From the NCBI GenBank assembly GCA_001600635.1, contig BCKL01000005.1, positions 127,581-191,580 of the forward strand: a DNA stretch of 64,000 nucleotides, written 5' to 3'. Made by a program: the position numbers and the translations under genes. Positions 599-59,915 of the stretch are shown here, in pieces. The notes under the pieces were generated by a model. The model did no database searches and was not told the origin of the DNA. It saw nothing but the letters and a program-made list of their open reading frames with translations. Source of the stretch: Leucosporidium creatinivorum. Lineage: Eukaryota; Basidiomycota; Microbotryomycetes; Leucosporidiales; Leucosporidiaceae. The number at the start of each line of letters is the position of its first letter. Positions within the stretch are counted from its first letter, which is position 1.

Positions 599-681
599 GC
601 CCTTGTAGCTCAGTGGCAGAGCGCATGCCTAGTATTCCCGAGTACAGCATGAGGTCCTCAGTTCGATCCTGGGCGAGGGCA
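599..681 (+). tRNA. tRNA-Thr(AGT) with 11-nt intron
   Basis: The cloverleaf is complete. The acceptor GCCCTTG pairs with CGAGGGC, the D arm is GCTC/GAGC around AGTGGCA, the anticodon stem is CATGC/GCATG and the T stem CTCAG/CTGGG flanks TTCGATC. The loop is interrupted after position 37 by an 11-nt intron at 635-645, the canonical place for tRNA introns. The anticodon is AGT (threonine). A T run follows at 691. Confidence 0.9.
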
Positions 682-12655: not shown

Positions 12656-13875
12656 AGTAGTGAGGTGGTGTTAATGTACTACATCACTACTAGTAGTGGT
12701 GACAAGAGGAGAGTCGAGTAGAGAGCTACAGCGAGCAGGGGAGGATCCGAGAGCGTACTGTAAGACTGTAAGAGGACCGCCGCGAGCTCGTCGTGCCCGC
12801 TTCTGAGACGCTTCTGCGATGCTGCTGGGACTGCTCATGCAAGTGAAGGTCGCCTCAGGACTGTCCCGAAACCGACCCAGGATCGCGCCGAGACGGCCTC
12901 AGGATTGGGTCGGATCGCCCCAGGAGCGGCTCAGGTGAGGGTCGACGGTCTTTGGCGAATTTGAGACGGTCATGGGGCGGTGCAGGAAGCCCTGGGACAA
13001 AATGCGGCTCTCAGGACAGTTATTACAGGTTCTGATTTGAGGGGGGTACTCGGAGGGTTTCAGCGAGCCTGGTCACCCTCGCTCATCCCCTCCGCCGACT
13101 TGGGCGCCCCACTCCCGTCCACCGCCTCCGAGTTGTTCCTCATACTTCCTCATACTAGATTCAACCAGGACACGATCACTACACCTCCTTCCTCTCGCCC
13201 AGTTTCATCACCTCGGAGCGCTTCGGCTGCTTCCTCTTCTTCACCTCCTGGAACAGCCCTTCCCCTCATCGTGGCCATCTTTGCCACGTCCACTTGGCGC
13301 TGCAGTGATCTTGAGTCCAATTAGGAGGGAGTGAGCGTGGGGACAGTCGGCGTGATTGGATGGGCTAGCTTGATGTGGAGCTAGCAAGCTGCCCGTGCGA
13401 GGAGGGAAGGAGACACGAAGCTTAGTTGGCAGCCACTTGGTGCTCTTAGCCTGTGAGTATTGATAGTAGTAGCATGTTGTGACACTCTGAGTGTACGCCC
13501 CATTTCCTCCATCTGAACGTCTGAATGGGAGGAAGGGTACGATCCGGCCAGGTGCACAACTGACAGCTTGCAGAAACGGGCGGGAAGAGAAGACGAGATG
13601 AGATGATGTGCAAGGGAGAGAGGGAAACGCTACACCAAGTCCATCCGCCGCCCGCGGTGGGGCCGAGTCCTCTCCTCCTCCTTCTCCTGCCTCGACGCTC
13701 CCGCCTCACATTCTCAACATACCTCCACAAGCAAGGAGCAAGCACAGGTTGCGCTCCGAATTGCCGAGCCTGGTTGCGCGCCTTGATAGTCAGACGGCGA
13801 GGTCCATAGCACTTGCAGGAAGTAGCAGTCACATATGGCCAGATACAGTAGGCTACAAGCTGGTTCAATCCCTCG
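12656..13875. other. gene-poor stretch
   Basis: At 12840-13010 there is a third, looser set of GACGGTC/CGGTC words. A 114-codon frame at 12980-13324 has a Ser/Pro-rich end and no recognisable family. Nothing else is supported. Confidence 0.35.
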
Positions 13876-13962
13876 CCTGGACACCCAGGATCGAACTGAG
13901 GACCTCATGCTATACCGTGTTGAAAGTACTAGGCATGCGCTCTACCACTGAGCTATGAAGGC
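13876..13962 (-). pseudogene. degenerate tRNA-Thr(AGT) copy
   Basis: The D arm, anticodon arm (CATGC/GCATG, loop CTAGTA...A with a 15-nt intron), variable loop and T arm match the tRNA-Thr at 599-681. The acceptor arms GCCTTCA and TGTCCAG pair at only about two positions, so a mature tRNA is unlikely. The intron differs in length and sequence from the intact copy. Confidence 0.65.
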
Positions 13963-14518: not shown

Positions 14519-14641
14519 TGAATCGAGTGGGACTCGAACCCACGCATCTTTCGATACTAGAATGCACCTCGACAGTCGAGGAAGAATGTACATTGTACAG
14601 TTTCTTGAGTCTAGCGCCTTAGACCACTCGGCCATCGATCC
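14519..14641 (-). tRNA. tRNA-Leu(CAA) with intron
   Basis: Read on the minus strand, GGATCGA pairs with TCGATTC and the D arm is GGCCGAGTGGTC-like. The anticodon stem is CTAGA/TCTAG with loop CTCAAGA, interrupted by an intron of about 45 nt. There is a long variable arm and the T arm is GTGGG-TTCGAGT-CCCAC. The anticodon is CAA (leucine). A TTTT stop follows within 10 bases. Eukaryotic tRNA-Leu(CAA) genes commonly carry such an intron. Confidence 0.9.
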
Positions 14642-19330: not shown

Positions 19331-19477
19331 CACCTGTGAGCAACATCCATGTGCTCATGATGATTATGACCCTTGAACACCCTTCCTTTGATCAAATGTG
19401 TGCCTTCCACTGCAACTATCTGCCTTTGTCTGCAGCAGCAGCTCCTTCAGACTTTAGAGTCCCGAGCCACACATCTC

Positions 19478-19565
19478 GATACTAGAATGCACCTCGAGAG
19501 TCGAGGAACGATGTGAGTTGTACAGTCTCTTGAGTCTAGCGTTAGACCACTCGGCCATCAATCCT
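19478..19565 (-). pseudogene. truncated tRNA-Leu(CAA) copy
   Basis: It matches the intron, anticodon and 5' half of the tRNA-Leu at 14519-14641 but lacks the T arm and 3' acceptor. There are small deletions (GCGCCTT reduced to GCGTT in the D region) and one acceptor change. It cannot fold as a tRNA. The upstream flank to 19643 is duplicated as well. Confidence 0.85.
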
Positions 19566-19643
19566 GTTGTGAAACATAGAACGACAGAGCCGTATAGACC
19601 CTGCACAACCGGGAGGAAGGTTCGCCGAAGGGGTCGCTAAGAA
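19566..19643. repeat. copy of the flank at 14642-14718
   Basis: About 78 bases are near-identical to the upstream flank of the intact tRNA-Leu, in the same orientation. Identity ends after GCTAAGAAGCGC. Confidence 0.85.
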
Positions 19644-20121
19644 GCGCTCTAAGCTAGGACATGCTCTCACTGCCGACATCCACCACTACTGGAGAACGAA
19701 GTCATAGCTTATCTTAGCCCCGCAGCCTCTTACCACACTTGATTCACACCAATTGGGCTCGGCGCAACATCACCGAGTCAGAGGTGCGGCTCTAGATCCC
19801 GTCCAGGTCCAGTGCTAATCTCCAAAGCCATCCGCTCATCTCCGCTGTAGCATAGCTTAGGGATGCTTGAGGCCGCGAGGTAGACGAAGAGGCCGGCAAG
19901 CTCCATGAACCCTGCTCGTATCAAGCGCCGAGGGGAGCAGCGAAAGGCGGCCGGGGGCCATTTGGAGCTCGCAGACAGTCAACAGACTACGATCATGTCC
20001 AGGGAGTAGGCATAAGCTGTACCACACTCGTCAGCAATCCGACATCAGCAACGAATGAACGCGAAGGGGAAGCGCGACTTTCCGGCGGCGCTTCCTGTCC
20101 TCCTCCACATCTCGCAACACC
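19644..20121. other. intergenic region and promoter of the next gene
   Basis: No supported gene. The last 60 bases before 20122 are the leader exon of the gene that starts there. Confidence 0.5.
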
Positions 20122-41638: not shown

Positions 41639-42875
41639 CTACGCCCATCTCGCCCTCAAGTCCTCCTCCGAAACGCCCGTGCGCCGAGCTTGCCTTGCCG
41701 TGAGCGAGGGGATGTGTTGATGGGGCAAGCTATTGTAGCTAGAGAACTGACTACAATAGTGATGTGTCAGTTCCAAGCTCAGACAATGTTATGAGAGAAG
41801 AAGGGAGAGAGACGAGCCTGTCCGGCGCCGGGGAAGGGATGACGCCCTTCACCCACCAGCTCACGGCCAGTCTTCATGACAGCCTGAAGGAGCAGTAATT
41901 TTGTCAGTGCAGGAGCTGGGACAAGAGAGAGGATAGCAATCTCACAGCGTGGTGCGCTACCGCGGCGAGGACAACGCGGCCTCGAGCGTAAGGATCCTGG
42001 ATGGGGGAGTGGACCTCCGTTAGCTCACTTGTTCGAATACTCTTGTGGGGTACTGAGGTGGAAGCTGGACCACAAGAGAGGGGTCATGTCACTTGTCGCC
42101 GACTTGTCGCCGAGCGCCGAGAATCAAGACGTCGGCTTGACAGACGTCGGCTTGATTCAACTCACCAGTGCATCCCATTTCTGGTATCCCAGCCAGATCA
42201 CGGACTCTGCGTTTCCGCCCAAGAGCGCAGCACGGGCCATTCCCATCGCAACCCTTTTGACGAAGCGGAACATGATTTCGCCTGCGCCGAGAACATCAGC
42301 CGAGCCGAAGAGGGCCCTCTTCTGTTGTGTACGCACTGGCGGTAGAGTCCAGCATGAGCTGAAGAGTATTGCAGACTTTGTCAGCTTTATTCTGTTTCCC
42401 CAGCAGCGGAGAGGTGCAACCTACGCTGATGAAGGGTCGCTGGCTGTTAATCCCTGCGCCACGGACGACTTCTTGGGCCTCAAAGGTGTCCTTTAGGCCG
42501 CGCCGGGTCCTGTAGCCTCTGGTATTATTATTGAGTAGCCTGTGCAGCTCCTCACCTTCCTTCAGTACATCCCTGCCGAGTTAAAGCGGGTGATTGGTGA
42601 GGGAAGGAGAGCACTTGAAGCGAGCCCACTCACCTGCAATGATCATCTATGCAGCCACGTTCTCTCGCCTCATTGTACTGCGATGGATGAGGTCTAGGAA
42701 ACACAGGGTGCAACCCAAGGAAGAGCCGCGCCACCTCGTCCCGCTGAGCCGAAGCGGCGAGGTATTGTTCCTTCGTCGGAGAGTAGGGAAGTCGAGGCAA
42801 AGCTTTACCCAAGGGTGTCTCCCGGAAGCGATGCTGTAGCTCAGCCTCCCCTAGATAGGATGTTGATACCGACAT
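41639..42875 (-). CDS. family-X protein, copy 1 (3' end unresolved)
   Basis: This is the first of three paralogues of an unrecognised family. Exons from the 5' end: 42634-42875, 42425-42572, 42337-42358, 42166-42281, 41946-41996, then one from about 41883, and a last one ending at 41639. The start is MSVSTSYLGEAELQ. Shared features are LFLGLHPVF in exon 1, an exon 2 of exactly 148 nt ending in RPFIS, ESVIWLGYQKWDAL, ARGRVVLAA, and the C-terminus RQARRTGVSEEDLRARWA. An additional 169-nt intron (41997-42165) interrupts what is one exon in the other copies. The last two junctions do not keep frame with any good splice pair I found, so either a rare splice site or a frameshift is present. It diverges from the F-box-like gene. 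Confidence 0.65.
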
Positions 42876-43306
42876 GCTGTGACGAGGGAGCAGAAGGGAA
42901 AGCCACACCGCTGCAGCTCGAAGTGCGATGAACGCCGAGGAGCGGCTGTACGGCGAGGAGTCTTTGCAGCAATTCCGCATCCGGCTCCTCGAGACGCAGC
43001 TATTCATTAATGCCGTCTCTGCGCGGCCACAGCGTCGAAGGGACAAACACATTGCGGAGGAAGCAAAAGAAGTTGCTCGGCGCTGAGTCTCGGCACTAAA
43101 TTTCGGCTCTTCTCAAGGGCACTCTATATCTAGCTGCAGCCACTGGGAGTGGTATGTAGGAGATTTTGCATGCTATCTTTGTCCCGAAGTAAAGTCAGAC
43201 CGCTGGCCTCCTATCACGTGGCCCCTTGCTTCAGCTCGAACCGCCCTCCCAGCTCTCGGTCTCTTACGCTCACCTCGCTTTCGTCACTCACCTCCAACCG
43301 CTCGCG
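42876..43306. promoter_or_regulatory. divergent promoter, family-X copy 1 / F-box-like gene
   Basis: 431 bases between outward-facing start codons. A weak AT-rich patch lies around 43150-43190. No gene was seen. Confidence 0.4.
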
Positions 43307-44575
43307 ATGAAAGCTCAGCTAGCTCAAACACTTACCAACACAACCTACGCCCGTCCTCAGCAGCCTATCGACTCTCCTGCCGCTGCTCTGCCCACGGAAA
43401 CGCTTCAGCACGTCTTCGAGCTCGCGCTAGACCAAGACGACCACTTCGAGCGGCAGAGCACGAGGAGGTCGTTCAGCAAGGTCTGCTTCCACTGGTATGC
43501 CGTCGTCCCCTCTCCCATCGAGTACGCTGTCTCGAGCGCCCCGGAAGCGAGGAGGCTCGCGCTCAAGCTCAAGCAGTCGACGAGCGAGGCGGGCAAGAAG
43601 GTGCAGCGTCTTGCCATTCGATTGGGAGCCACCAACAGCGTCAACCGATCGGGAAGGACCGCCCAGCTCCTCGAGGCGTGTCGAAACGTCGAGCACCTCT
43701 CTGTGGACTTGAAGAGCGCGCTCGCTGGCAAGTTGTCGGACAGTGGTGGAGGGATGGGACGCAAGCTGTTGGAGGCGGTAACGAAGCTCGGAAGTCTACG
43801 CGTGCTGGAGCTACATAATCAGGCATTCGTCACGCCTCCAGTCCTCGCCGAGTAGGCTTCGGCGTTCTCTCACCTCGCTCGAGCCGCGCGTTGACCTCTA
43901 GCTCACCTCAGGATGATCCATTCCTGGCCGAATCTGCACACGCTTCGCCTCAACTGCAATTCTGAATATGGCAGTAGGACCTCACTGCCCATACTCCCCG
44001 CTCTCGCCCTTCGACAACTCGAAATCGCCGGCGACCACCCTCTCGTCCTGGACCTCCTCCCCCATCTCGACACCCTCGACACGCCTCTCTCGCTGATTGT
44101 CCGCAAGCGTATCCATGTTAGCGACCACCACGCCGGGAACGACGAGGAGGAGGAGGAGGAGGAGGACCTGCGCCCCACCCGCCTCTGCGCTCGAGCGCTA
44201 CTGCCCCTCGCCAAGCAGGTCGACCATTTCGCAGCGCCAGACGGATGGGTTGGAGGACCGGAGCTGTTGGATCTCCTCCACCAGATGAAGAAGCTCCATA
44301 CGATCGAGCTACACTATTCGATGGTCGAGGATCTCATGGACCTCGAGCCCTTCCCCGAGTTGGTGCAATTCTCCATCGTGGGTTTTGAGCATGATGGCGT
44401 CGCCGATGAATATTTGGGCCAGGACGACAAGGATCTGCTAGTCCAGAGTCTACCGCCGTCAGTGCAGCGAGTTTGCCTCCCTCTCTGGTTCGTTGAGACC
44501 TACATGTACCGGCTGGAGAGGGAGGAGATGGAGGACTTTGCGGCAGAACGTGTGGTTGAGCTTGTGTGGACTTGA
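43307..44575 (+). CDS. F-box-like protein
   Basis: Two exons (43307-43851, 43912-44575) give 402 residues in phase. Residues about 25-65 look like an F-box (AALPTETLQHVFELAL followed by SFSKVCFHWYAVV), the adaptor that links substrates to SCF ubiquitin ligases. The remainder carries leucine-patterned segments (LLEAVTKLGSLRVLELHN, WPNLHTLRLNCN) like the degenerate LRR tails of basidiomycete F-box proteins. A run of seven or more Glu at about nucleotides 44146-44166 separates two parts. Basidiomycetes have large families of such genes; the target is unknown. Confidence 0.7.
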
Positions 44576-45364
44576 AGTATGTGTGCTCATCTATTTGCTC
44601 AATTTCTTCGCTGACAATCCTCAAGCACAGATCACCTTCGGTAGAGCTCAAGGAAGGACGAGCGAGGGAACGCCGAGGAGACATCTGAGCTGAGGCGATT
44701 ACAGGATGACTTGAGGTTTTACAAGCAACGAAGCGAGCTCTGGCTACCACTCTTGATCTCGACTGAGTGGGACGCGCTGCTTCGAAGCCGAGAGGGAGAA
44801 CAGTGCAGCGAGGGCATTGGCCCGAGCCGAATCCTTCGCATGCACAATGTTGGCGAGCCTGAGCCTCTTCTATAATCCGACTGCGTTCAGGTTATCCCCT
44901 TTGCTCTTCTTCAAGTGGTGCAACTTGACTCGGGCTGACGACAAGCTGGCCCGAAGGAGCGAGAGCCGAGCTCGAGTCGAAAGCCGAAGTTGCTGGGTTT
45001 GAGCTCACATTATTCGTCTGAGGCAAGAAAGAGACAGCTCAGGTCCATCTTGCTATACTCGTCATCTTCACCTTCTACTGACTGCATCGCCCTCCTTCAG
45101 CTCGCTCGACGAATGAAAGTGGTTCGGCGCTCGCTCTAACGGCCGTGAGAGAGGCAGAACGCCACGCTATGGGGTTTGAGATACGCCTGCTTTCATAAAA
45201 GAGCTTTGCACTTCCCTAGCATGCAACGAGCACGGCGAGTTCTGCAAGCAGGAGACAGCTCTCCTCACTGCTCTTCGCCAACCCTCTTCTTTCTCGGCGT
45301 TCCATCGAGGCGCATACCGCATAACAAAAATCGAGAATATCATCATACTATCCAACCTACAACA
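44576..45364. other. convergent intergenic region
   Basis: 789 bases with only short frames. No tRNA, repeat or conserved product was recognised. Confidence 0.45.
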
Positions 45365-48300
45365 CTACATCTCCTCCGGCTCGTCCATCATCTGCGGCTC
45401 CTCGACTCGTTGGATCCTCCCCGAGCTCTCGCCCTCCTTCTCTGCTGCTGCTGCTGGCTCATGACTCGGTCCATTGAGAGGTGAGGGAACGGGAGGTCCT
45501 CCGTCGACGGCGTCGAGGGGGGAGAGGGAGATCGTCGGTTGGCGTTGCGGCTGAGGAGGGGGGTTCGTCGGCGTCGGCGATGAAGCGGCGGCTGGGGGAG
45601 GGGCATGCGACGAGGAGGAGGTGGAGGAGGAAGAAGTCGGAGCCGTGCTAAACTCTGTAGCTCCAAGGAACGGCGAGCTCATCGGACTAGCGACGACCTG
45701 TCCTCCTCCCAGCGGCGTCTTATTCCCCTCCTCACTCCCTTCCTCTCCCGTAGTCTCCGAGCTCAGACTCGTCATCCCCGTCCCGCTCCTCTCCCTCTCC
45801 CTCCCAGGATCCACACTCGAACTCCTCCGTCTCATCCCCTTAAGCTTGGCCACCACACTCATCGCCAAAAACGTAGACGCCCTCAGCGCATTGAGCGCGC
45901 GGTCCACCTCGGCTTGCGTGGGTTCGGGGAAGGAGATGCAGTTCTCTTCGTATGGTGGGAGAGGTGAGGAGCCGTCGAGAGTGAGCCAGGGGTCGGTCCA
46001 GAGGGAGCGGATGGTCGGTCGGTCGGAAGGCGATTTGGTGAGGAGGGAGGAGAGGAGGGATTGGAGGGGAGGGGAGAGGGTCGTGGGGATTGAGGGGTCA
46101 CTGTGGAGGTTAGTAGAGGGGTTAGTAGAGGGCAGGGAAGAGGAGAGAGGAACAGACGAACGATTCGCGGATGGCTTTGAAGAGGAGGGAGGGGTCGGGG
46201 TCGTCGAAGGGTAGGCGACCGACGACGAGGGCGTAGAGGGTTACTCCTGTAGTGTGAGTTCGAAGGAAGCGAGTGGAGCAAGACAAGACAATACGGGCAA
46301 TGAGGAGGGAGGAAGAGGGAGAGCGTGAGTCAGCGAAAGAGCGCGACTCGACTCGGCCGACGCCGAGCTCGACTCTCGACGAGAGCGAAAGAGAACGCAA
46401 GCTCGAAGGAACGCACCTAATGACCAAACGTCACACGCATACCCATGCAAATCCAACTTATGCTGCACTCCTCCCGTCCCTGCATCATCACCCAAAGGTC
46501 AGCTCTCCGTCTCTCCTTCTCCTTCTCCCTTTCCCCCTTCTCTCCTCCCTCCTCTCCCCTCCCCACCCCTGCCCTTCGCCTCGCCTCTCGGAAGAGCACC
46601 ACTCACCTCCACTCGCACCCCCACCACCACCACCACCACCACCCAGCAACTCGGGCGCCATATACGCCGGACTGCCCTTGGAGTCGATCCCCTCGTCTCC
46701 CTCCTTTTCCGTGAATTTCGAGATGCCGAAATCGATGAGCTTGACGTGGTGCAGGTCGGCGAGGAAGAGGCAGTCTGTTGTTGTTGTTGGGTGGAGGGAG
46801 CGAGGGGAGCGGAGAAGGTGGGGAAAGGAGGGAGGGAGGGAAGGCAGGAGGAGCGATATTAGTAGAGAGCAGAGAGAGGGAAGAGAGGAAAGAAGGCGTA
46901 CTATCCGGCTTGATATCCCGATGGACAATGTTGTTATGATGAAGGTAGGCGATCCCTGTTCCCCTCAACCAAGCTCGGTTAGCTCTCCTCCTTCCTTCCT
47001 GCCGCCTGCCTTCCCTCTCCCACCCGAGGAAAGGGAGGGAACTATGAGACTCACCCAGCACCAACTGCCTACAGACCTCGCGCGCTCGCTCCTCGGTCAT
47101 GGGCGAGACTTGCTCGCCTTGCGAGATGCGCAGGATGGGCCCGCCGGCGCAGAGCTCGAGGACTGTTGTTGGGAGGAGAGAGTGAGAGGAGGGGGGAGAG
47201 AAGAGGAGGAAGAGAGGTCAGTGGGGAGGAGAGAGGAAGGGGGAGGAAGAGACGAACCGATGAGAAGGGCGTCGTCGCTGTTGTCGTTTGACCGAGCGAG
47301 AGTAGGAAGGAGTTAGCTTCCCTTCTCTCACACTCTCCCTCTCCTCGCCCCCGTCCTTCTTCTTGGCGGAAAAAGAGCTCGACGACTCACCTAGTCACAT
47401 CAATCACCTCATGCACCCTAGCAATATTGGGATGCTCGACCTTCTTCATAATCGCCACCTCGGTCTTGATCAACTCGAGGTTATCCGGTCCTTGATCGTG
47501 GTCCTTCTCTCCATCTCCATCCTCGTCATCGTCGTCTGGCTGTACTGGTCGTGGTGATGGAGCAGCCCGACCTCCCCGACCTCCCCGACCTCGTCCCCGA
47601 CCCCCGAGGGAGGAGCGGGAACGACGAGCGGCTTCCGTCGCGGCGATTTGGCGCAGACGGCGTTTGGAGAATTCTTTGATGGCCTTTGGGGGTGATGGAG
47701 AGTGGTGATGATGAGAGAGGAGGGAGAGGTGCGAGAAGAGGAGAGAGAGAGAGAGGGGAAAAGAGAAGGCCGAGCGCCGAGATGGATGAGTGAGAGAGGG
47801 TGGGTGTAGTGACATGGATGGAGAGGCGGTAGAATTTGGATGTAGTAGGAGAACCAGTGGAGAAAGGCACTCAGTCAGCTCTCTCTCTTCTCCTCCCAGA
47901 TCTCTTCCCCTCGCCGAACTCGCCAAACTCACATACTCGACGCCCGTCTCCCTATCGGTAGCTCTCTCAACGGTAGCATAACTGCCCTTGCCCAAATGAC
48001 TCTCGCCCATCAACCTATACTGATTGACGCTCCTGGTGCCATCTCCTGAATCTACGGCGTAGGCGTTCAAAGTCTCGCGGTAGGCGCGGGAACCGGAGGA
48101 GGAACCGGTCGAGGAGGTGCGGCGGTGGTGTTGCTGTGATTGGGAGGAGGAGATGGGGTGCGGGTTGGGGTGCTGTGAGGTGCTGCCAGAAGGTGCAGGG
48201 GCAGGAGAGAGGGAGGGGAAGGCGAAGGGCGAAAGGGAAGCAGAAGAGGAGGGTGCTGCTGTAGGTGTGGAAGAAGAAGGAGGGTCGATGGGAGTAGGAG

Positions 48301-48700
48301 GAGTTAAATGATGTGAAGGTGGTGGTGAAGGTACAGTCAACGGAGGGAGGGATTGAGATTGTCGTCCAGCTGTTGTAGTCTGAGTCGCTTGAGTGGGAGT
48401 GGGAGTGGGAGTGGGAGTGGGAGTGGTTGAATCTGTAGGTGACTCTACTACAGGGTGAGTGATGGATTGAGCTGAGATGGGTTGCTGTATTGCTAGTTGA
48501 GGTAGAGTCGGTTTGGCAGAGCGAGTCGCAGCAGATGCAGCTGTAGTTGAAGGCTGTTGAAGGGGAGGAGGAGGGGAAGGTGGTGGTGAGGGCTGTTGAC
48601 CGTTGTCCCCTACGCAGAGTAACTTCTTCCACATTGTTACCCTGGTAAAGAGCAGAGAAAAGCGAAGCGAGAGAGCGGAGCGCAAGAACCAGGTGAGCAT
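45365..48700 (-). CDS. CaMKK/Snf1-kinase-kinase type protein kinase
   Basis: The best match by motif is the Ssp1/Sak1-Tos3-Elm1/CaMKK group, which phosphorylates AMPK/Snf1. Nine exons (from the 5' end: 47933-48700, 47391-47683, 47258-47277, 47055-47162, 46902-46955, 46607-46774, 46417-46479, 46162-46246, 45365-46100) give 764 residues. A second in-frame ATG at 48634 has a better context and may be the true start. Kinase motifs: LGKGSYATVE, AIKEFSKRRL, EVAIMKKVEHPNI, VLELCAGGP, YLHHNNIVHRDIKPD, LIDFGISKF, KGSPAYMAPELL and CDVWSLGVTLYALV. An Arg/Gly insert after the catalytic lysine (RGRGRGGRGGR region) corresponds to the RP insert typical of CaMKK. A poly-Gly run follows APE. Both ends are Ser/Pro/Thr-rich. 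Confidence 0.88.
48391..48426. repeat. hexanucleotide repeat (GAGTGG)6
   Basis: Six tandem copies of GAGTGG lie within exon 1 of the kinase and encode alternating Pro-Thr on the minus strand. Such tracts change length easily. Confidence 0.9.
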
Positions 48701-48883
48701 GAGAGCGCCTCGCGCCTAAGTCGAGAGAGAGCATTTCATATGAGCGAGCGACAGCCTCCTGTCTGAACTCAACTGTACCTCTTTACATCTCTCTCTGTAG
48801 CTCTCTACGCCTGCACCTGACTACTAGCTCTGTTTGAATCCCCTTTCGAGCTATTTCAGATCCATCTCCGCTCGGCGCAGATC

Positions 48884-49446
48884 TCAGAGCAACCTCGAGC
48901 CAAACCTGATCAACAACGCTAAGGACAGCAGCTGCAATGTAGTACAGAATCAGTTGTAGCTCTCCCCTCCCCTCCCCTCTTCTCTCCACCTGTACAAAGA
49001 CTCACAGTAACGATCCCAGCAGGCATAACCTTGCCACTCCTCGCGAACCTACTCCCCATGCCTACCAACAACACCGCACTCACTCCTGTATCACATCAAA
49101 CCCCCCTGTATCAGCTCAGCTCTCCTCCACCTTCTGCTCACCCCCCCACCTCGCACTCACCAACGATCAAAGCCACGTCCTTCTGATTCACCGTCTGCCT
49201 CCTCACGCCATACCCTAGCAACGCTCCACTCCCTCCTCCTGCTACAAGAGAGGCTACAGAGCCGCGCTTGAGGAACCCGATCGTACCCCCGAGGGCGATG
49301 AGCGACGAGGCGAGGTACTAGAGTTAGCAGGAAACGCCGTTGGAGGTGAGAGAGGTGGGGGTTGAAGGAAGGAGAGGGCGTTAGTGGGTTGTAGCAAGGT
49401 AGGAAGGGGAGCAACGCACGCCAAAGATGGTGTCGACGTCAGACAT
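48884..49446 (-). CDS. TMH11: TMEM14 family membrane protein
   Basis: Four exons (from the 5' end: 49420-49446, 49161-49317, 49006-49085, 48884-48931) give 103 residues in phase, the usual family size. Segments YLASSLIALGGTIGFLKRGS, VAGGGSGALLGYG, VSAVLLVGMGSR and LLSLALLIRFG form the hydrophobic helices of the TMEM14/FATTY-ACID-EXPORT-like fold. Relatives lie in mitochondrial inner membranes (TMEM14C, heme biosynthesis) or plastid membranes (fatty acid export). Which role applies in this fungus cannot be told. Confidence 0.85.
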
Positions 49447-50692
49447 TGAAAGCTTGCTGCTTGGTTTGGTGGAGATGAGACGAGCTGAGCGAATGGAGCG
49501 GAGGAGAGAGAGCAGCCGAAAGGCGGAGGGGAGGGGAGGAAGGGAGGGGGGAACAAGGCAGGTATACAGGTTGCATTCGTTGAGCTCGGAGAGAATAGCT
49601 GTAGTGACTGCCGCTCGCTGCTTTCGGGCTAGTTCTTACTCTCATCGAAGCCCAGCTCCCAACCCGAGCCAACGCCGAGCGCCGAACCGCTTCGCCGTGG
49701 CTCAAGTACCATCTTCAGTGTGCTGCTAAGCTTCACTAGGCCTTCGAGCTACCCAGAAACTGTGGTGGTGCTCACCAGCTCACTCGGCTGGTTCAGATCC
49801 CGAGATGCAGCGCCCGAGGAGGGGGTCGACCGTTGATTCCCCTGGCCGTCGCTTCGCCCCAAGCACCTCGAACTGCCCTTGAGGAGCAAGCGAGCGGGGT
49901 AAGAAGCTGACATGAGACGGAACGCAAGCTCAGTTGCCCTTCTACATGCGCAGTCGAGCCAGCTTCAGCGTCGTTTTCCCTCCCCCCCCCGGGCCCCCCC
50001 GTGCTGAGCGCCCGAGATTTCGCCGCTCTCTTCCTCCTGCAAACGTTGCCAGCCTCAGTAAGAGCGTCTTTGCAAATGTTATCAAGGAAGCACATACCTC
50101 ACACTCTCCTCCTCCTTCATTGCGAGCTCGAGGATGCGAAGGAGCGTCTCTGTCGGAAGAGCAGCGGCGGGAGAGTCTGCAGGCTGTTGAGGGCGGGTGT
50201 AGGTGGTACTGGTAACTTGTTTATCTAGCTGAGCTTCCATCGCGAGCGGTGGGAGGTGAGTGACAAGAAGCGAGGTGAGGGCGGGAGGGCAAGAGAGGGA
50301 GGGCTGGAGATGAGGCGAGCAGTCAAGAGGGGTAAGACGTGCAGGCGGGCCAGTAGCAATCTCAGACAGCGTGGAGAAGCTCGACTACATATTCCGAGCG
50401 ATCGCTGTAGCGAGACACCATCACACTTGCTTGACCGAGCTCGCCCTCCTTTCGCCGAGCTTCCTCCTGCTCTTACGTATTCTGCAGCTTGGGGGAAGCA
50501 TCGTCGGGAATGCCAGATACAACAACATATACGATGCTCTGCTTTACGGAGACCCTTCGACAGCTGCTCCTGCCTCCTGGCTGCTTGCGTTGCATCGCGC
50601 CCCCTCCTCGGCGAAGCGGTGTCGCTGACTCCCTCTCGAGAAAATCCGGTACGGGGTCTCTCCCTCTTGTCTAAAACCTCGTCACCCCGACC
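49447..50692. other. intergenic region between divergent genes
   Basis: About 1.2 kb with no supported gene. It contains a palindromic C-run/GGG/C-run at 49982-50000. The last 100 bases are the likely promoter of family-X copy 2; a word CCTCGGCGAAGCGGTG near 50607 also occurs upstream of copy 3, in the same relative orientation. Confidence 0.45.
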
Positions 50693-51895
50693 ATGAGCTC
50701 TCTCCATTTTGGAGCGAACGAAATTACCGAACTCGGCAAGCTCAGGAAGACTGCCGCCGACAATCCCTCTCAGCTCGCTCTGGTTCATGACTACTGGGCT
50801 AGGCCCGAACATACACACTGGGCTAGTCAGTTGCTCTCCAAGGTCCTAAAACCGCTCTCCCAGCCCAAGCGACAGTCGCCCGAATCGGGACGACCCGGAC
50901 GAACCTCTACCTACGATGTTGACAACCTTCGAGCCGAATACAAGGAAGCTTACGAGGAGTGTGCCTCATTTGGGCAGCTTTTTATTGGGAACAGTCCCTT
51001 CTTCTCATCGTCTACTACCACAGAGAGAAGCCTTGCAGAGTGAGTCCCCCCCCACAGGCTCCGAGTCATCGCCGAGGCCGAGCTAATCATCATGCTGTGC
51101 TGCCTGGGCACAAGGGAGGTCGTGAAAGATGGCGGTCGAATCACCGCAACAACTAGGTTCGCCTTTGAGAAACGGGGTGTACATTACCACCGTCTGGAGG
51201 GAAAACCGGCGGACATGCCCACGGTCGACAAGAGGGCTCTTATTTATCGTCCCTTCATCAAGGCAAGCTACAGGTCCCCATAATAAAGCAGATATAACTG
51301 TCACTGACTTCCCGTGCTGTACAGCTCATGCACAACGTCAGCTGTGAGTCTGAGCGCCTCCACTGAGCCCACTATCGGCGCTAGCAACGGAAGCTGACCT
51401 CGACTCAGCGTGACAGCAACCCTCCTCCATGCCTTTGTCGAGTATGTATATCTGAGGATGATTGGAGCGTGTGTAGCCAACCCCTGGAACACGTCGGCGG
51501 TCGTCTGGTTGGGCTATAAGAGATGGCCCAACCTCAACTTCCTCGACCGAGCTCGAGTCGTTCTTGCTGCCAAGGAGTACGAAGAGGTGAGCTTGAGTTA
51601 TTACTGATGGAGCACGATAGGATGCCACCAAAACTTAGTCCCGAACTGATCAGCTTGCTCTCCTGCAGTACATTTATGGCTTGGGGCCCAAGCCCGCGCA
51701 TGCGAGTCTCCGAGAGATCGCTCCTCCTCACAGCGTAAGGCTGACCAACCTATTCGCCTACCACAGGTACCCCTCGCACTGCATGAGTTTCCTACGATGC
51801 ATGAACTCGGGCATCAGCACGTGCCCAGCCTCTCCCCGAGGCAAGCTCGGCGCTCGGGCGTCACGCAGGAGCAGCTTCGTAGGCGGTGGGTGTAG
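50693..51895 (+). CDS. family-X protein, copy 2 (intact)
   Basis: An unrecognised family with paralogues at 41639-42875 and 57451-58648. Six exons (50693-51039, 51115-51262, 51325-51343, 51417-51586, 51669-51734, 51767-51895) give 292 residues in exact phase. Exon 2 is 148 nt, identical in length to exon 2 of both paralogues. Conserved points: FGQLFIGNSPFF near residue 95, RPFIK, AVVWLGYKRWPNLNFLDR with RARVVLAAKEYEE, and the C-terminus HQHVPSLSPRQARRSGV...LRRRW. The intron after 51262 has a GC donor (AAG|GCAAGC), and intron 1 would use an AAG acceptor. No signal peptide, membrane helix or known catalytic motif was seen. Confidence 0.8.
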
Positions 51896-52174
51896 ATAGA
51901 TGAGGGTGGGCGCGATCAGCAACAAGAACCAGAGAGCATTTGAGACTCGTGCTGGTCGAGCTCCCATGTACAGCGAGCGAAGCTTCCAGCGCGCTCTACG
52001 AGAGACCGTCAAGTCGTCGACCGAGCACGGCCTGTTGCCTCGTTCTTGGGCTCTGAGGCACCTCAATGCAGCCCACATGGCGTGACACCCTATTTACAAC
52101 GCCTCGACCTCTCTATACTCCTCGACAACGCCTCTGGATGCTCCAACCTTCACTTCTCCTTCCCCGACCCTGGC

Positions 52175-52829
52175 TCAGATGATAGTCGCCACGATCTTGC
52201 GACTATGCGCCATATCACGGAACTCGAGGAGATAGATGCCCTGCCATGTTCCGAGTACTAGCCGACCGTCCTTGATGGGGATGTGGACCGAGACGGAGAA
52301 GAGCGAGGAGAGGTGATGGGATTGCGAGTCGTCGGGGCCTTCGTCGGTGTGGTCAAAGGGGAGCGATTGGGGGACGAGGTGGTCCATCACCATAGTCATG
52401 TCGCTGCGGACGTCGGGGTCGCACTGTGCGTGAGGGGAAGAGTTAGCTTTGCGAGATGGGAGTCAGACCAGCGCCGAGAGGGACCTACGTTCTCGTTGAG
52501 TGTCAAGGCGGCCGAGGTGTGCTTCATGAAGAGGTGCAAAATACCGGTCTTGGTCTCCGAGACACCATCCTGATCGAGACAATGTAGGTTAGTAGCGATC
52601 TTTCGGCTCTTTCCGAAGCGAACTCACTCGAATGTGGGAAAGCACCTCGTCGGTGATGAGATAGGAGCCCTTACTCTTGCGAGCGAGGGTGAATTCCTTC
52701 TCTGTAGATGTAGAAGCGAGGTTAGCATTCGACAGCTTGAGCGACAAGGTGACGTCGAGCTGCCCAGCAAGCTCGCCTCGAGCGGCGATAGCACTCACGA
52801 TAGCGGTCGAGTCCTCGGGTGAAGGGCAT
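52175..52829 (-). CDS. UPF0047/YjbQ family protein
   Basis: Four exons (from the 5' end: 52799-52829, 52628-52701, 52489-52569, 52175-52423) give 144 residues, the normal family size. Diagnostic stretches are YQKEFTLARKSKGSYLITDE, GILHLFMKHTSAALTLNEN, CDPDVRSDM, DEGPDDSQSH and IPIKDGRLVLGTWQGIYLLE. Bacterial YjbQ has thiamine-phosphate-synthase-like activity in vitro; the fungal role is not established. The start was chosen because MPFTRGLDRYQKEF matches the family N-terminus; longer upstream frames are shadows. It diverges from the ATP synthase gene over 145 bp. Confidence 0.92.
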
Positions 52830-52974
52830 GCTGTAGTTTGCTGAGCTAGAGCAGTGAAAGTGAAAGCAAGCAGGAGGAGGCAGGAGATCAACCCTTCTTC
52901 GCCCTCTCGCGAGCCCAAGTCCTCCGAATCGAGCCGGTGAAGCTCTCTCTGCCCAGCTCCGCTTCTTCATCAAA
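52830..52974. promoter_or_regulatory. shared promoter, UPF0047 / ATP synthase subunit e
   Basis: 145 bases separate divergent start codons of two housekeeping-type genes. No named motif was found. Confidence 0.45.
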
Positions 52975-53754
52975 ATGGTCTCACCAGCAGTAAACGTACG
53001 CTACAGGAATGCTCTCCGTGCTCTCACACCCCTCGCCAGCCCTTTCTCTACTCGCCAACAGCCAGCAATCCCCCTCGTTTTTCGCCCGCAACCGCGCCCT
53101 CGCCGGCGCCAGCAGCTCATCAACAAGCAGCCGTCTCCGCTTCCGCGAGCAGTGTCGGCGCTCGATGTACAGCTGTACAACAGGCAACTTGCAGCAAGCA
53201 ATCTGCAGCGTCGTAGCGCCCAGAGCAACCCACACGCGACCCCGTCGAGATTGGCTCGCTGACCCTCTCCCTCGCTATCCTCTCCCTCCCTACCCTCACA
53301 TTGCGCCCTCGGCTCCGCGCCCTATCGTACTACAGGTCGTGCGGTACTCGGCTCTCGTCGGCGGAATCTTCTACGGCATCTTCCACCGCCAGACTCTCCA
53401 GGCCAAGTTTGACGCCAACGCTGCCAACCAGGAAGTGCACAAGCGGGAACAGTGGCTCGCCGAGGCCAAGAAGGCATGGGCCGCTAAGACTGCTACCAAC
53501 GATGGACGTGAGTTGCTGTCATCTTGAGCGCACAGGGCGGCCAGCGCCGACCGAGACCTGTTTGGACGAGCGTGGAGCAGCGGAGAGCTGACTTCTTGCC
53601 CCTTCGCATATCCTACGCATCTCTCTCGACATTCTGTACACCGCCATATCACTCCCACCCTCCTTCTGCCCGCCCTCTCCGTCACTCAGTCATCACCGAC
53701 CCCGAGGCGCCCGGATTCGACCTCGAGAAGGTGCTCCTCAGCCTGGAGAAGTAG
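52975..53754 (+). CDS. TIM11: mitochondrial ATP synthase subunit e
   Basis: Subunit e is a small inner-membrane protein of the Fo sector that helps ATP synthase dimerise and shape cristae. Three exons (52975-52995, 53336-53507, 53690-53754) give 85 residues in phase. VVRYSALVGGIFYGIFH contains the membrane helix with the GxxxG-like GGIFYG dimer motif, followed by a charged coiled region with EVHKREQWLAEAKKAW and the tail LEKVLLSLEK. The first intron is 340 nt, unusually long here, and could contain alternative exons or the mitochondrial-presequence-like frame at 53009-53270. Confidence 0.88.
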
Positions 53755-54315
53755 ATGCGAGGAAGGGAGCATGGGGCGCGGGGGATACGTACAAGCTGGA
53801 AGATAAGATCGGTTGTGGCATCAAGAGCTCGGCGCGGATCTCAGGGAGCGAAGGATTGGAATTCGGCGCTCGGTGCAAGAGGCTCTCGCTACGACTCTAC
53901 GGCGCCTCGATTCTTCTGCGCTCTTCCACCTACGGCATTCCATATTATCTCCTTTCTCTGCCCCCTCCAATTTCAACCGCTCGCCCCTCACGGTTTCTCC
54001 GATCTCAAACTCAAGCTTCGCCGAGCAGACTCGCTGGTCGTAGGGCGTCTCGGACCCTGCAGTGGAGGCCAGCGAGTCGCCACCTACTATCCGGGAGGTT
54101 TACGAGCCCGTCTACTCGAAGCTTGCGCCGAGGACTCGGCGCTGGCTGAGAAGCTCGGACCGGGCTAAGAATCGCAAAACGGGGTCCTCTGCCGCTCTCG
54201 GTGATCTGCGAAGGTTCACTACAAGCTGAAACGATACCTGGGACCGCGCAATACGTACCAGGTCACAAAGCCGATTCTCGAACTTGGTTGCTCGACGGAA
54301 AGTCGGCGCTTCCAG

Positions 54316-55254
54316 CTTGGCTCTCTACCGCTCACTCGTCTCAGCTCACATGCACGCCGACCTACCAGCACAACTCGTGGGCCTGCTACGAACTCTCAGC
54401 GATGAGCTCGTAGCCCAGCGCCTCTCCCAAGAGCCCACAGCACCTCCCTTCGACCCTCAGCATTCGCTCGCTTCGTCCACTCCTCTCTTCTCGGCGCTGC
54501 ATGCTGTCAACCGGGATACGCTCAGCTTTGCACGAGATTGCAAGGCGCAGACGCAGGATGCTAGGCTAGAGATGGATAGCGCGCATTTGAGGCTGCAGGT
54601 GAGTTGCGCTTGCTCGACTTGCGCTTGAACGACACTGGAGCTCACTTCGGTGCTCTTACAGAACCTCATGTTCGAGCGCAATCATCTGGAGCGTGAGATC
54701 CGCAAGTGTGAAGAGTTCGAGTGCGCTACAGCTGCTGCTTTGCGGCTCTTTCGAGGGATTCGTGAGCTGACCTCGCTGTTCGTTACAGGTCCGAGTACCA
54801 GAACCTGCCGCTGCTACCCCTGGAGGACTTCTTGAACCTCGCCAAGCTACCAACACCACCAGCAGGCCTCACCATCCCCGTACCAGAGGATCCGCACGAG
54901 CTCATGTTGGCGCGGCTGCAGTTTGAGCTGGCTGAGAGGCAGAGGTGGGTCACCGACAGCTTTGCTAGGACTCGAAGTGTGTCGCTGACCTTCGCCGGAT
55001 CCTTATACAGGTTCGAGGACGAGAGGAAAGAGCTCGGCACGCGCAAGGCGGCTCTCCTCAAGACCAACCAGGCCAAGAAGACCAAGCTGGAGGAACTGGA
55101 GAAGCAGGTCGACGACTTTGTGGTGGTGCGTACCTACTCGCTTGAGCCGAGCGCCTCTCGGCGAGCCGTAGCTGACCTCGGCGCTCGTTCTCTCGCTTCA
55201 CAGGCAGCCAAGGCCATCCAGTCCAACATGCACGAAGAGCCAGCTTCCGTCTGA
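54316..55254 (+). CDS. THOC5: THOC5-like THO complex subunit (5' end unresolved)
   Basis: THOC5 belongs to the THO/TREX complex for co-transcriptional mRNA export. Clear exons are 54316-54598, 54662-54720, 54789-54944, 55011-55125 and 55204-55254. Matches to the family include ALHAVNRDTLSFARDCKAQT, NLMFERNHLEREIRKCEEFE, SEYQNLPLLPLEDFL, PEDPHELMLARLQFELAERQ and a coiled coil. The N-terminal exon is uncertain; 54055-54212, after a CGTAG acceptor, reads SPPTIREVYEPVYSKLA and is a candidate. The product ends shortly after the coiled coil and is much shorter than animal THOC5, as in other fungi. Confidence 0.78.
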
Positions 55255-55580
55255 GCAGGAGCATGTTCAGATATGGTGTACAAATGCTGTGCTGTGCTGT
55301 ATTGTAGCTGTAGTCGCTTGTGCTCGGATCCCTCGGCGACCGAGAGCTGCGAGAGTGAGGCTCGGTCTGCTCCTTTCGCTGGTGCTGCAAGGCTGTACTA
55401 CTCGCCAAGGAGCTGCTACCAGAATTAACAACCTACACCGCTACCCCAGAGCATCTTGAGCGGTCTCACTGACGTTCAGCTCCGCCCGAAGGTCCGAGCC
55501 TCCCTTGCCGCTGGGCGACGGCCTCCCTTGCTCTCCCTCTCTCCACATTCTTGTGACCCCACCGCTCGTCTCGTTCGAAA

Positions 55581-57211
55581 ATGGCCTCGTCAAGCACTGC
55601 ACCAGCACCAACACTGTCTGCTGCTGGTGAGTGAGTTCACCTTGACCTGCTGCAGCTCATCGCTCACCCGCTTTCCGCTCCCACAGAGGGTCCGTCGTTG
55701 CTTGCTGAGCCCGTTCTGAGGCGCTGCAGACATCTGACGAAGTTCTCGGGCATGCAGGATTCGTCTCTGGAGCTCTGGCCGCATGTACAGCAGTCACAGG
55801 TGCGTCGCATCACCCTACAACTCTCGCCCGGTGCCCAACTCACGTCCCGTCGCAACGGATGAGCAGTGACCAACCCCGCCGAGGTGTCCAAGACGAGGCT
55901 TCAGCTCGACGGAGAGCTACAAGGTCGCAAGGGTGCCATCCTCCCCGTCAAGCCGGCCGTACCAGGCGTCGTAGCAGAGGCGCCGGTCATCCCGGCCGCT
56001 CTTCAGAAGAACGCCTCGGGGAAGGTCTACACGGGACCAATCGACTGCTTGCAGAAGACGTGGAAGTTTGAGGGTATCAGGGGAGTGCAGAGGGGTCTCG
56101 GAGCTGCTGTGAGTCGGGCTGCATAGGCAGCGAGAGCCTTGTTGTGAGGAGGGGAGCTGATTTCCGGTCTCCCTATCCATCGACAACGTGCAGTACACCT
56201 ACCAAGTCGCGCTCAATGGATCTCGGTTAGGATTCTACGAGCCGCTACGGCACCGCATCAACTCGCTCGCTGGCCACGAAGCATCGTCGGTGCACGCCTG
56301 GACGTCGATCACCGCTGGAGCCAGCTCTGGAGTGATTGGAGGTGAGTGATATCGCGCTGCAGCTTCGGAGTGCCATGCTGATCCCTCGCTTCCGCTATAG
56401 CCATCTTTGGAAACCCCCTCTTCCTCGTCAAGGCTCGCATGCAGGCCTACTCCCCCTTCAACCCCGTCGGCGCTCAGCACAACTACCCTTCAGTCTTTGC
56501 CGCCTTCCGTACCATCGTCAAGGCCGATGGCTTCAAGGGACTCGCTCGCGGTGTCGACGCCGCCATGCTCCGAACGGCCATGGGCTCCTCGGTCCAGCTC
56601 CCCGCCTACAACCTCGCCAAGTCTTACCTCGGCGAATGGGGAGTGACCGATGGTGTGGGACAGTTCTTGATGGCTTCTCTGTTCTCTGGACTTTGCGTCT
56701 GCGCCGTCATGCAGCCAGCAGGTGAGTCCTCGGCGATGAGCTATCGCGGAAGTGGGCCGAGATGAGCTCACCTCCTTGCCTCCAACAGACACCGCCCTCA
56801 CTCGCATGTACAACCAATCACCAAACGCCATTGGACCCGACGGCAAGCCACGAGGACTTCTTTGTACGTCTCTTCCGGTGAGGCCGACTCGCTGCTTCGG
56901 CTCACCTTCTCCTTCCCGCTCCCAGACAAGAACCCTATCGACTGCCTCTACAAGACATGGAAGACGGAGGGTGTACGTGGATGGTACAAGGGTACTACTG
57001 CTCATCTCGCTCGTATTGCGCCTCACACTGTACGTCGCTCCTCAGACCTTCCCCCTCCAATCGGCCGAAGCTGACCTCTGCACTCTCTTCTACACTCTTA
57101 CATCTTCCCACTCACCCAAAACAGGTCATCACCCTCACCGCCAACGACTTCATCTCCCGCAAGTACCTCGCCTACAAGAAGAGCAAGGTCGCTGTGCTGA
57201 GGCAGGATTAG
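55581..57211 (+). CDS. OAC1: mitochondrial carrier, OAC1/SLC25A34-35 type
   Basis: Oac1-type carriers exchange oxaloacetate, sulfate and related anions across the mitochondrial inner membrane. Exons 55581-55626, 55710-55799, 55867-56108, 56194-56341, 56401-56721, 56789-56863, 56927-57030 and 57125-57211 keep phase. The acceptor at 55709 (GAG) is unusual, and 55686 (CACAG) would break the frame, so the N-terminus is uncertain. Carrier signatures: TNPAEVSKTRLQLDGEL in repeat 1, GNPLFLVKARMQ in repeat 2, and a divergent QPADTALTRMYNQS in repeat 3, each with downstream G-rich helices (GVQRGLGAA, GLARGVDAAMLR, GWYKGTTAHLAR). A Pro/Ala-rich loop extends repeat 1. Substrate is inferred from family likeness only. 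Confidence 0.85.
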
Positions 57212-57450
57212 AAGGACAACGAGCGCTCACGCAGCTGCTGCAACCCTCTCGCATAACATATCAGCATCTGTCGAAGCCGGGTCGAGAGCCGCTCGCTCGT
57301 TGCGCCCTTCGCGCGCTTCCCTTCGGTGTCGTTCGAGCGAACCCTGCTCGGCGAAGCTGCTCGAGTTGAGCGATCAGACAACGCAAAAGATTGCAGGATG
57401 CTCTCTCCTCCTCCTTCCCGATACCGTTCATCGTAGTCTAGTGACATGGG

Positions 57451-58648
57451 CTACGCCCACCTCGCCCTCAACTCGTCCTCCGAAACGCTCGAGCGCCGAG
57501 CTTGCCTCGGGCTGAGATTGGGGACGTGCCGGTGCTGAAGCTCAAAGTATGGGTACTCCTCCCTCATCTGTGCAAGAGCTCAAGGTCAGCTACTCCTCCT
57601 CGAGGCGCTGAGGGAAGGCTGGCTCACATGCTCCGGCTTCGGCACCGCTGCTCCAGAGCGGCCTCGGTTATTTGCTCGGTAGGCAGTCACCTCGTCGGTG
57701 TACTGTGTGCGCAAATTGTGAACCAGCATTAGATATAGCTTGTCTGCTACCAAAGCGCACCTCATCATACTCCTTGCAGCAGAGGACGACTCGGGCTCGG
57801 TCGAAGAAGTCGAGCGAGTGCCAGTCCCTGTAGCCAATCCAGATAATGGGTGACGACAATGCGGGTTTGCCTCGGTGTCTGTAAGTGCCTGCCATGCGAC
57901 AGGCTATGCTTTCGACGTAGTTGAACAGGACGGTAGCTACAGAAAGAATTAGCCACTGCTCGGCGATCCCTTTCGACGACTGCGCCAGGCTCACCGCAAC
58001 AGGCCTTTGCAATGAGCTGGGGAGCATGAGGCGGTTAGCAGATACGCTTGTACACGTAGAGCTGACCTAAATCTTACTGCAATGAAGGGGCGATGCTCTC
58101 TAGTGGGTCGAGAGACCTGACTCCAGTCGTAGGGCTTCTTCTGCTCCAGCGTTCCGTAGATTCTCGACCAGCGCTCCCCCTTGCCCCAGGATTTTAACTG
58201 TTTCTTCGTCTGCTCAATGGCAGCTCTACAGTAGGTCAAGGACTCAGCACAGCGCAACACTAGCCCGGGAAGGGGTTTTCTCGCTTGCCACAGTCAACTC
58301 ACTCGGCGTAGTAGATTACCTCATCCCATTCCCTGAATTCCTTATATTTGCTCGTAGGTGCACTGGTTGGTGCAGTGAAGAATGGGGCTGGCTGGACAAA
58401 CAATTGACAGAAAGCGCTTCGGCGCTCTAGAGCGGTTCTGTACTCCTCTCGAAGCTTCATCAAGTCTGCTGCAGTGTGCTGAGGTGCCCCATCGCGCGGT
58501 AGAGGGGACATGAGAGGCGTGAGATAGTCTGTCAGCGCGTGTCCGTGCCACTGCCTCTCCACGAAGTTGAGATCCTCGGAGTGAGGTTGAGCTCGGCGAG
58601 AAATGCCGGGTCATGACGGCGGAACTGTTGCGGTGGATGGGTGCTCAT
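57451..58648 (-). CDS. family-X protein, copy 3 (possible frameshift near the start)
   Basis: Paralogue of the genes at 41639-42875 and 50693-51895. Exons from the 5' end: about 58313-58648, 58078-58225 (148 nt), 57995-58016, 57761-57936, 57628-57702, 57451-57567; all but the first keep phase. Conserved points are FCQLFVQPAPFF, EHRPFIA, PIIWIGYRDWHSLDFFDR with RARVVLCCKEYDE, and HRHVPNLSPRQARRSSVSEDELRARW. From the ATG at 58648 the frame reads MSTHPPQQFRRHDP, but the family-like frame (DLNFVERQWHGHALTDYL) is in another phase. The gene therefore has a one-base shift near 58570, or its true first exon lies upstream (a candidate reading MSFRRARLEARVLKEEDL is at 58820-58906). Confidence 0.68.
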
Positions 58649-59880
58649 GATAAAGGAAGCGCCAGGGAAGATTTGCGCACGAAGGAGAGCAAGCGAGGTC
58701 AACTTGTGCGCGAGGTCAGCTTCACCGCTTCGCCGAGGAAGCGCCTTCAGCGGGCCGAGCGCGCTCCGCTGGACGTGAAGTGCTTGTGAAAAGCTACAGC
58801 AATGGCTCAGAGATATTACCTCAGCTTTGCTCGTGTCCTTTCCCTGTGCAGCCAAGTCCTCCTCCTTCAACACCCTCGCCTCCAACCGAGCTCGGCGAAA
58901 GCTCACCTGCCGCCTCGCAAATCTCGAGGGACCAAGCCTCGAGCCACAATAGTGCGCCTGGAGCAGGACAAAGGAGAACTAAACTTGTATTGCTGATCCC
59001 TCCTGCACTCCTGGCTGACCCACTCGCTGTGTCCACCGCTGCCTCGGCGATGGGAGGACTTGCTCGGCGCAGGCTAGACGATGAGAAAACTCCTTCGAGC
59101 TGGCTCAGCAGAGCTGCGTATCCACCCAATTGCTGCTGGAAAGGAGCTCAAGACTACTGACAGGTCGCAGAAGAGCTCGAGAGAGAATGGCGAACGAGAG
59201 AAGCAGCTCGGCGAAGTTGAACTGGGTTGCGAGACGGGCTCAGCTGGGCTACGTGAGTACGGGAGCGCGCAGCGAGCCAACACGACCCTTTTCCTTCTCT
59301 CTGCTCACATGCAGCCTCTCACCTGTCTTCGACTGCTCCCCTCATCTCGACTCGCTCCTTCCTCCGCCTCTTGCAATTGCCCGCCCGCTCTCCGAGTCAC
59401 CGTGCTTTCGTCGCTCGCACCGACCGCTCGCGAGGGAAGCTCAGTTAGAGAGGAAATCCACCAGCACACCTCCGCCCGCCCTCGGCAGCAGCGCCGCTCA
59501 ATTTCTTTCCCTTGCTCGGAGTCGCAGATTGCTCGGCGAGGGAGGTTCGGCGATGGGGGAGTCGGCCTTTGCTCGCTTCCTTACACGTTTGGAGGGGGTT
59601 TAGCTGTACTGCTTGCTACTGAGATGCCATTCAACTAGCTCTCTCCATCACCTGAGCTGCCTGAGTCAGCCGAGAGTTGTCCCGCTCCTTCGGTTCAGGC
59701 TGAAAGGCGAGGGGGTCAGCGAGCGCCGAGCTTTGTTGGATGCAGCTTCCCCGAGGGTACAAGGGGATACTTGAGAGCCGCAAAGACTTCACTACAGCTC
59801 CAGCGCTCAAGCTCGCTCTCCCTTCCACTCCACTCCACCCGCCCAAATGTGCCGAGGCGAGGGAGGGAGTCAACTCCGAA

Positions 59881-59882: not shown

Positions 59883-59915
<33 letters not shown>
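59883..59915. repeat. G33 homopolymer
   Basis: Thirty-three consecutive G on the + strand, with AAGGG following. It lies about 245 bp upstream of the bZIP gene. It could form a G-quadruplex or be a sequencing or assembly artefact. Confidence 0.95.

What the first reader, a model, noticed from the sequence alone, without database searches (positions are those of the whole stretch)
41639..58648. Family X: three paralogues of an unknown protein within 17 kb
Genes at 41639-42875, 50693-51895 and 57451-58648 share an exon 2 of exactly 148 nt, a WLGY..W / RARVVL block and a C-terminus reading LSPRQARRS or close to it. They are interspersed among unrelated housekeeping genes and differ greatly in sequence elsewhere, which suggests repeated duplication and fast divergence. 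I know of no function for this pattern.
Basis: seen in the sequence. Interest (0 to 1): 0.75.

Follow-up and report, generated by a model that had tools for sequence, protein, structure and literature searches.

The report
Duplicated orphan gene beside F-box genes
Three diverged copies of an unknown, probably fungal gene are real, and each sits back to back with an F-box-like gene or a broken piece of one, so what was copied is probably a gene pair; this is an ordinary kind of duplication with an unknown function.

Summary
The three paralogues (A 41639-42875 -, B 50693-51895 +, C 57451-58648 -) are real and homologous (BLASTP E 7e-24, 5e-26, 1e-42). Exon 2 is 148 nt in each, and three introns share alignment column and phase. 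No known domain was found (0 families in Pfam and NCBIfam, 0 PDB sequences at E<=10). No relative was found in viral contigs, prokaryote contigs or phages. No fungal genome could be searched, so "orphan" holds only for these collections.

Of 9 repeat pairs listed in a window self-comparison, 3 are X and 3 are this F-box start. The copied unit is therefore most likely a divergent X/F-box pair, with the partner intact only beside A.

Copy C's frame is broken near the proposed ATG. "Fast divergence" is unproven: synonymous sites are saturated in the 5' half. Only the last 27 codons stay alike at synonymous sites (36 of 51 against 67 of 173). Function is inferred only: a basic, helical, probably intracellular protein.

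The parts
41639..42875 (-). X copy A: 237 aa, 7 exons in my model (42634-42875, 42425-42572, 42337-42358, 42166-42281, 41946-41996, 41857-41883, 41639-41746); open from ATG to stop
   Evidence: splice sites inferred, no transcripts. An alternative exon 5 of 66 nt with a GC donor was used
50693..51895 (+). X copy B: 292 aa, 6 exons (50693-51039, 51115-51262, 51325-51343, 51417-51586, 51669-51734, 51767-51895); open from ATG to stop; one GC donor, one 32-nt intron
57451..58648 (-). X copy C: exons 58303-58610 (open frame; the link to the ATG at 58648 is broken), 58078-58225, 57995-58016, 57761-57936, 57628-57702, 57451-57567
   Evidence: first ATG in the open frame at 58511
43307..44575 (+). F-box/LRR-like gene facing X copy A (two ORF segments, about 43307-43852 and 43895-44575; boundary approximate)
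   Evidence: Pfam F-box-like E 0.037 and LRR_14 E 0.012, both below the curated cut-offs
50106..50240 (-). 5' piece (45 codons) of the F-box-like gene facing X copy B, no likeness after that
   Evidence: tblastn E 8e-13; DNA match 43225-43425 / 50122-50319 at 78%
59331..59489 (+). Relic of the same F-box start facing X copy C; AGG stands where the ATG was (about 59433)
   Evidence: DNA match 66% over 170 nt to A and 69% over 190 nt to B; not found by the protein search
41639..41719 (-). Conserved C-terminal 27 codons of copy A (HQHIPSL..RARWA), matching B 51812-51895 and C 57451-57531
   Evidence: synonymous-site likeness 36 of 51 against 67 of 173 elsewhere, 1 of 20,000 shuffles reached it

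Best explanation
Family X is a probably lineage-restricted protein family of a fungus that spread locally as half of a divergent gene pair: an X gene and an F-box-like gene whose starts face each other about 430-785 bp apart. Shown: three homologous X genes with the same basic intron layout, each with the same F-box start beside it. Inferred: the pair was duplicated twice within about 17 kb (one copy inverted), the X copies diverged under protein-level selection, and the F-box partner decayed in two of the three places. Most likely mechanism, inferred and weak: X is a soluble, basic, helical protein inside the cell that acts by binding other molecules through its helical WLGY block and its conserved basic C-terminal tail, with the F-box partner once co-expressed from the shared spacer. 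I put about 0.65 on the duplicated-pair account and about 0.2 on the binding role.
For: Homology and shared introns. Codon position 2 is most alike and position 3 least in all 3 pairs, as expected for protein-level selection. Of the 9 repeat pairs listed for the whole window (E<=1e-6 and at least 80 nt, or E<1e-8), 3 are X and 3 are the F-box start, and the F-box pieces lie only beside X copies. B and C also share a 25-nt stretch (92%) about 65-90 nt upstream of the X start. pI 9.2-9.7 and no strongly hydrophobic stretch (maximum 19-residue Kyte-Doolittle mean 1.12-1.67). Exon 4 was modelled as three helices, mean pLDDT 86.2.
Against: Only a 5' piece of the F-box gene is left at B and C, so a copied promoter fragment would look the same. 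The F-box label rests on matches below Pfam's cut-off. F-box codons A/B have dS 0.63 (0.30-1.16) while the 5' half of X is saturated: either the two did not move together or sequence exchange touched some parts. Most of the spacer shows little likeness beyond the F-box side. The other four exon-4 models scored 53.7-74.3, the model covers 58 residues from three sequences, and exon 1 folded poorly (55.8). Nothing tests the binding role.
Confidence: 0.6

Rival explanations
1. X genes and F-box starts came together by separate events: X was duplicated on its own and the F-box 5' pieces are copied promoters or exchanged sequence.
For: F-box A/B synonymous divergence (0.63) is lower than that of the X body (saturated in the 5' half), and only the F-box start is present at B and C.
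Against: All three F-box pieces lie head to head with an X gene, and none was found elsewhere in the 64 kb.
Confidence: 0.25
2. The family is a mobile-element gene or its debris, scattered among housekeeping genes by transposition.
For: Dispersed copies in both orientations among unrelated genes.
Against: No terminal inverted repeats shared by the units (3, 0 and 2 inverted pairs found, none at matching unit ends). No transposase domain. Five or more introns per copy. Likeness past the stop codon is absent for A-B and A-C and weak for B-C (P 0.716, 0.293, 0.008).
Confidence: 0.05
3. X is a diverged member of a known domain family that three sequences cannot reveal.
For: Only three diverged sequences were available and structure models covered single exons.
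Against: 0 Pfam or NCBIfam families and 0 PDB sequences at permissive cut-offs; no Foldseek match under E 1 (best 5.2 in PDB, 2.5 in BFVD).
Confidence: 0.35
4. Some copies, C above all, are decaying pseudogenes.
For: C has a broken frame near the proposed start. A lacks about 30 N-terminal residues and has an extra intron. B needs a 32-nt intron.
Against: A and B are open from ATG to stop in my models, and C is open from 58610 to its stop with all splice junctions in frame. Codon position 2 is most conserved in all pairs.
Confidence: 0.3

Closest known systems
Lineage-specific fungal gene families expanded by local duplication (general kind, recalled)
   Same: Several diverged copies close together, no recognisable domain, shared intron layout
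   Different: Here each copy faces the same F-box start, so the unit looks like a gene pair
kss F-box antidote / toxin pairs of Caenorhabditis tropicalis (PMC12680543; abstract and 12 of 38 passages seen)
   Same: An F-box gene tightly linked to a diverging paralogue family, with the linked module duplicated
   Different: Those toxins descend from a tRNA synthetase subunit and were tested by genetics and biochemistry. Here the X protein has no known origin, nothing shows toxicity, and two of three F-box partners are only fragments

Membership tests
F-box/LRR proteins (neighbour gene at 43307) | N-terminal F-box above Pfam's curated score | tested here: not met
   F-box-like 14.2 bits against 24.3, E 0.037, residues 27-67; called F-box-like only
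F-box/LRR proteins (neighbour gene at 43307) | Leucine-rich repeats | tested here: inconclusive
   LRR_14 14.8 bits against 40, E 0.012
Any Pfam or NCBIfam family (X) | Profile match | tested here: not met
   3 of 3 proteins without a family at E<=1; 5 of 5 pieces without a family at E<=10
DNA transposon gene (X) | Terminal inverted repeats at unit ends | tested here: not met
   ungapped repeats of 16 nt or more only
Secreted effector (X) | N-terminal signal peptide | tested here: inconclusive
   No strong hydrophobic stretch anywhere; no dedicated predictor run, and C's start is uncertain
Toxin-antidote pair (X with F-box) | Toxicity of one protein relieved by its linked partner | not testable with these tools
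   needs expression or deletion

The most novel reading that the evidence does not exclude
X and the F-box-like gene form a functional pair in which the F-box protein recognises X and sends it for degradation, as in F-box antidotes of nematode toxin-antidote elements. The one intact F-box gene at 43307 would then serve all three X copies in trans, which would explain why the other two partners could be lost.
Probability: 0.04. Interest if true: 0.75.

Novelty: new member of a known kind. Interest (0 to 1): 0.3.

Why it matters
If X is lineage-restricted, it adds an undescribed protein family to the fungal catalogue. The repeated pairing with an F-box start gives a testable guess about function that the genes alone do not. 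It also shows that orphan duplicates should be examined together with their divergent neighbours.

Tried and rejected
Helix-turn-helix reading of the C-terminal tail (a recalled resemblance to pipsqueak-type motifs): no Pfam match for the three tails even at E<=10, so dropped. HMMER's filters make such short-piece searches weak.

Mobile element: no shared terminal inverted repeats.

dN/dS: NG86 dS is undefined in the 5' half (N to RPFI) for all 3 pairs. Whole-gene values (dN/dS 0.86/2.84, 0.81/3.94, 0.73/1.79) are too saturated to use, with 89, 144 and 13 of 300 bootstraps undefined. YN00 failed in every case in which it was run.

Gene conversion as the cause of the alike 3' ends: the likeness fades at or soon after the stop codon, which does not favour it, but it is not excluded. 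The synonymous-site test pools three pairs that share sequences, so its P is approximate.

Structure: exon 1 gave mean pLDDT 55.8 and was not searched. Exon 4 gave 14 PDB matches and 45 BFVD matches at E<=10, none at E<=0.001. The pdb_via library was unavailable.

Literature: 8 searches. Four of them returned no paper. The 20 of 583 papers listed never name Rhodotorula. None of the listed titles concerned this family. The library is open-access only, so this does not show absence from print. One paper was looked into: PMC12680543, by passages.

Not done: plasmids, E. coli genomes, PHROGs and PADLOC were not searched. The phage search used copy B only.

Full report
What is there. Conceptual proteins are 237 (A), 292 (B) and 281 (C, open frame only) residues. 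Pairwise BLASTP gives E 7e-24 (A-B), 5e-26 (A-C) and 1e-42 (B-C) (on the models); aligned identity is 31-36%. Exon 2 is 148 nt in each. Introns fall at alignment columns 180, 188 and 246 with phases 0, 1 and 0 in all three, and the first intron is phase 2 in all three. Splice sites were chosen by eye with the copies side by side, so the agreement is partly circular; the protein homology is not.

Corrections. Copy C does not read through from 58648: that frame ends after 38 codons, and the conserved frame has its first ATG at 58511. B uses a GC donor, an AAG acceptor and a 32-nt intron in my model. A has one extra intron and a shorter N-terminus. No fourth copy lies in the window.

Known or not. 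Pfam and NCBIfam gave 0 families for 3 of 3 proteins at E<=1, and 0 for 5 of 5 pieces at E<=10. PDB sequences gave 0 at E<=10. Two scans each of viral contigs (37 and 17 pattern stretches) and prokaryote genome contigs (86 and 14) confirmed no relative, and B had no match in phages. None of these collections is fungal. The organism is not identified; the gene content and short introns fit a compact basidiomycete genome, which is my inference and comes from no call.

The neighbour. Upstream of each X gene, on the other strand, lies the start of the same F-box-like gene. It is complete beside A (43307-44575), a 45-codon 5' piece beside B (50240 down to 50106), and a relic with AGG in place of ATG beside C (about 59433). 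DNA matches are 78% over 202 nt (A-B), 69% over 190 nt (B-C) and 66% over 170 nt (A-C). In a self-comparison of the whole window, 9 pairs were listed: these 3, 3 of X, 2 tRNA-related and 1 low-complexity. The protein search found the piece at B (E 8e-13) but not the one at C. The F-box label itself is weak (E 0.037, below cut-off). Nearby genes with Pfam support include ATP synthase e, Thoc5 and bZIP, and Tmemb_14, ThiF and E2_bind.

Evolution. Codon position identity is highest at position 2 and lowest at position 3 in all 3 pairs (for example B-C 0.47, 0.60, 0.37 for positions 1, 2, 3), so the copies diverged as proteins. NG86 dS is undefined in the 5' half in all 3 pairs. In the stretch from RPFI to the KEY block it is undefined (A-B), 1.79 (A-C) and 1.18 (B-C). 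In the last 27 codons it is 0.67, 0.31 and 0.47. Among shared residues with synonymous choice, 36 of 51 use the same codon in the last 27 columns against 67 of 173 elsewhere; 1 of 20,000 shuffles reached this. The 45 F-box codons (A/B) have dN 0.24 and dS 0.63. So both outer ends of the unit look younger than its middle. Sequence exchange or DNA-level constraint could cause this; I cannot tell which.

Structure. Exon 4 (58 residues, three sequences) was modelled as three helices with mean pLDDT 86.2 and pTM 0.71; the other four models scored 53.7-74.3. No fold match reached E 0.001 (best 5.2 in PDB, 2.5 in BFVD). Exon 1 was poor (55.8). The proteins are basic (pI 9.16-9.72) without a strongly hydrophobic stretch.

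Reading. The best account is a local duplication of a divergent X/F-box pair with later loss of two F-box partners. A role of X in binding, and any link to F-box-mediated degradation, is inference. The nematode kss antidotes (PMC12680543, passages only) show that a linked F-box gene can control a diverging paralogue family; that is an analogy, not membership.

Noticed in passing
window 14519-14641 (-) and 19467-19668: A tRNA gene (Rfam) and its flank are repeated at 91% over 206 nt; the second copy reaches no Rfam tRNA threshold and may be a relic.
   Followed up: partly
window 599-681 (+) and 13874-13962 (-): Two related tRNA genes, probably with introns: Rfam finds both, ARAGORN with its bacterial settings finds none in the window.
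   Followed up: partly
window, 119 places: The word CGCCGAG (CTCGGCG) occurs 119 times against 54 expected from a third-order Markov model; it also lies in the conserved X tail.
   Followed up: partly
window 50605-50629 and 58715-58739: A 25-nt stretch at 92% lies about 65-90 nt upstream of the X starts of B and C, a possible shared promoter element.
   Followed up: no
window 59886-59915: A run of about 30 G between the F-box relic of copy C and the bZIP gene.
   Followed up: no
window 6940-8970: Overlapping long reading frames with no significant Pfam family (one weak ADH_Fe_C match, E 0.076).
   Followed up: no
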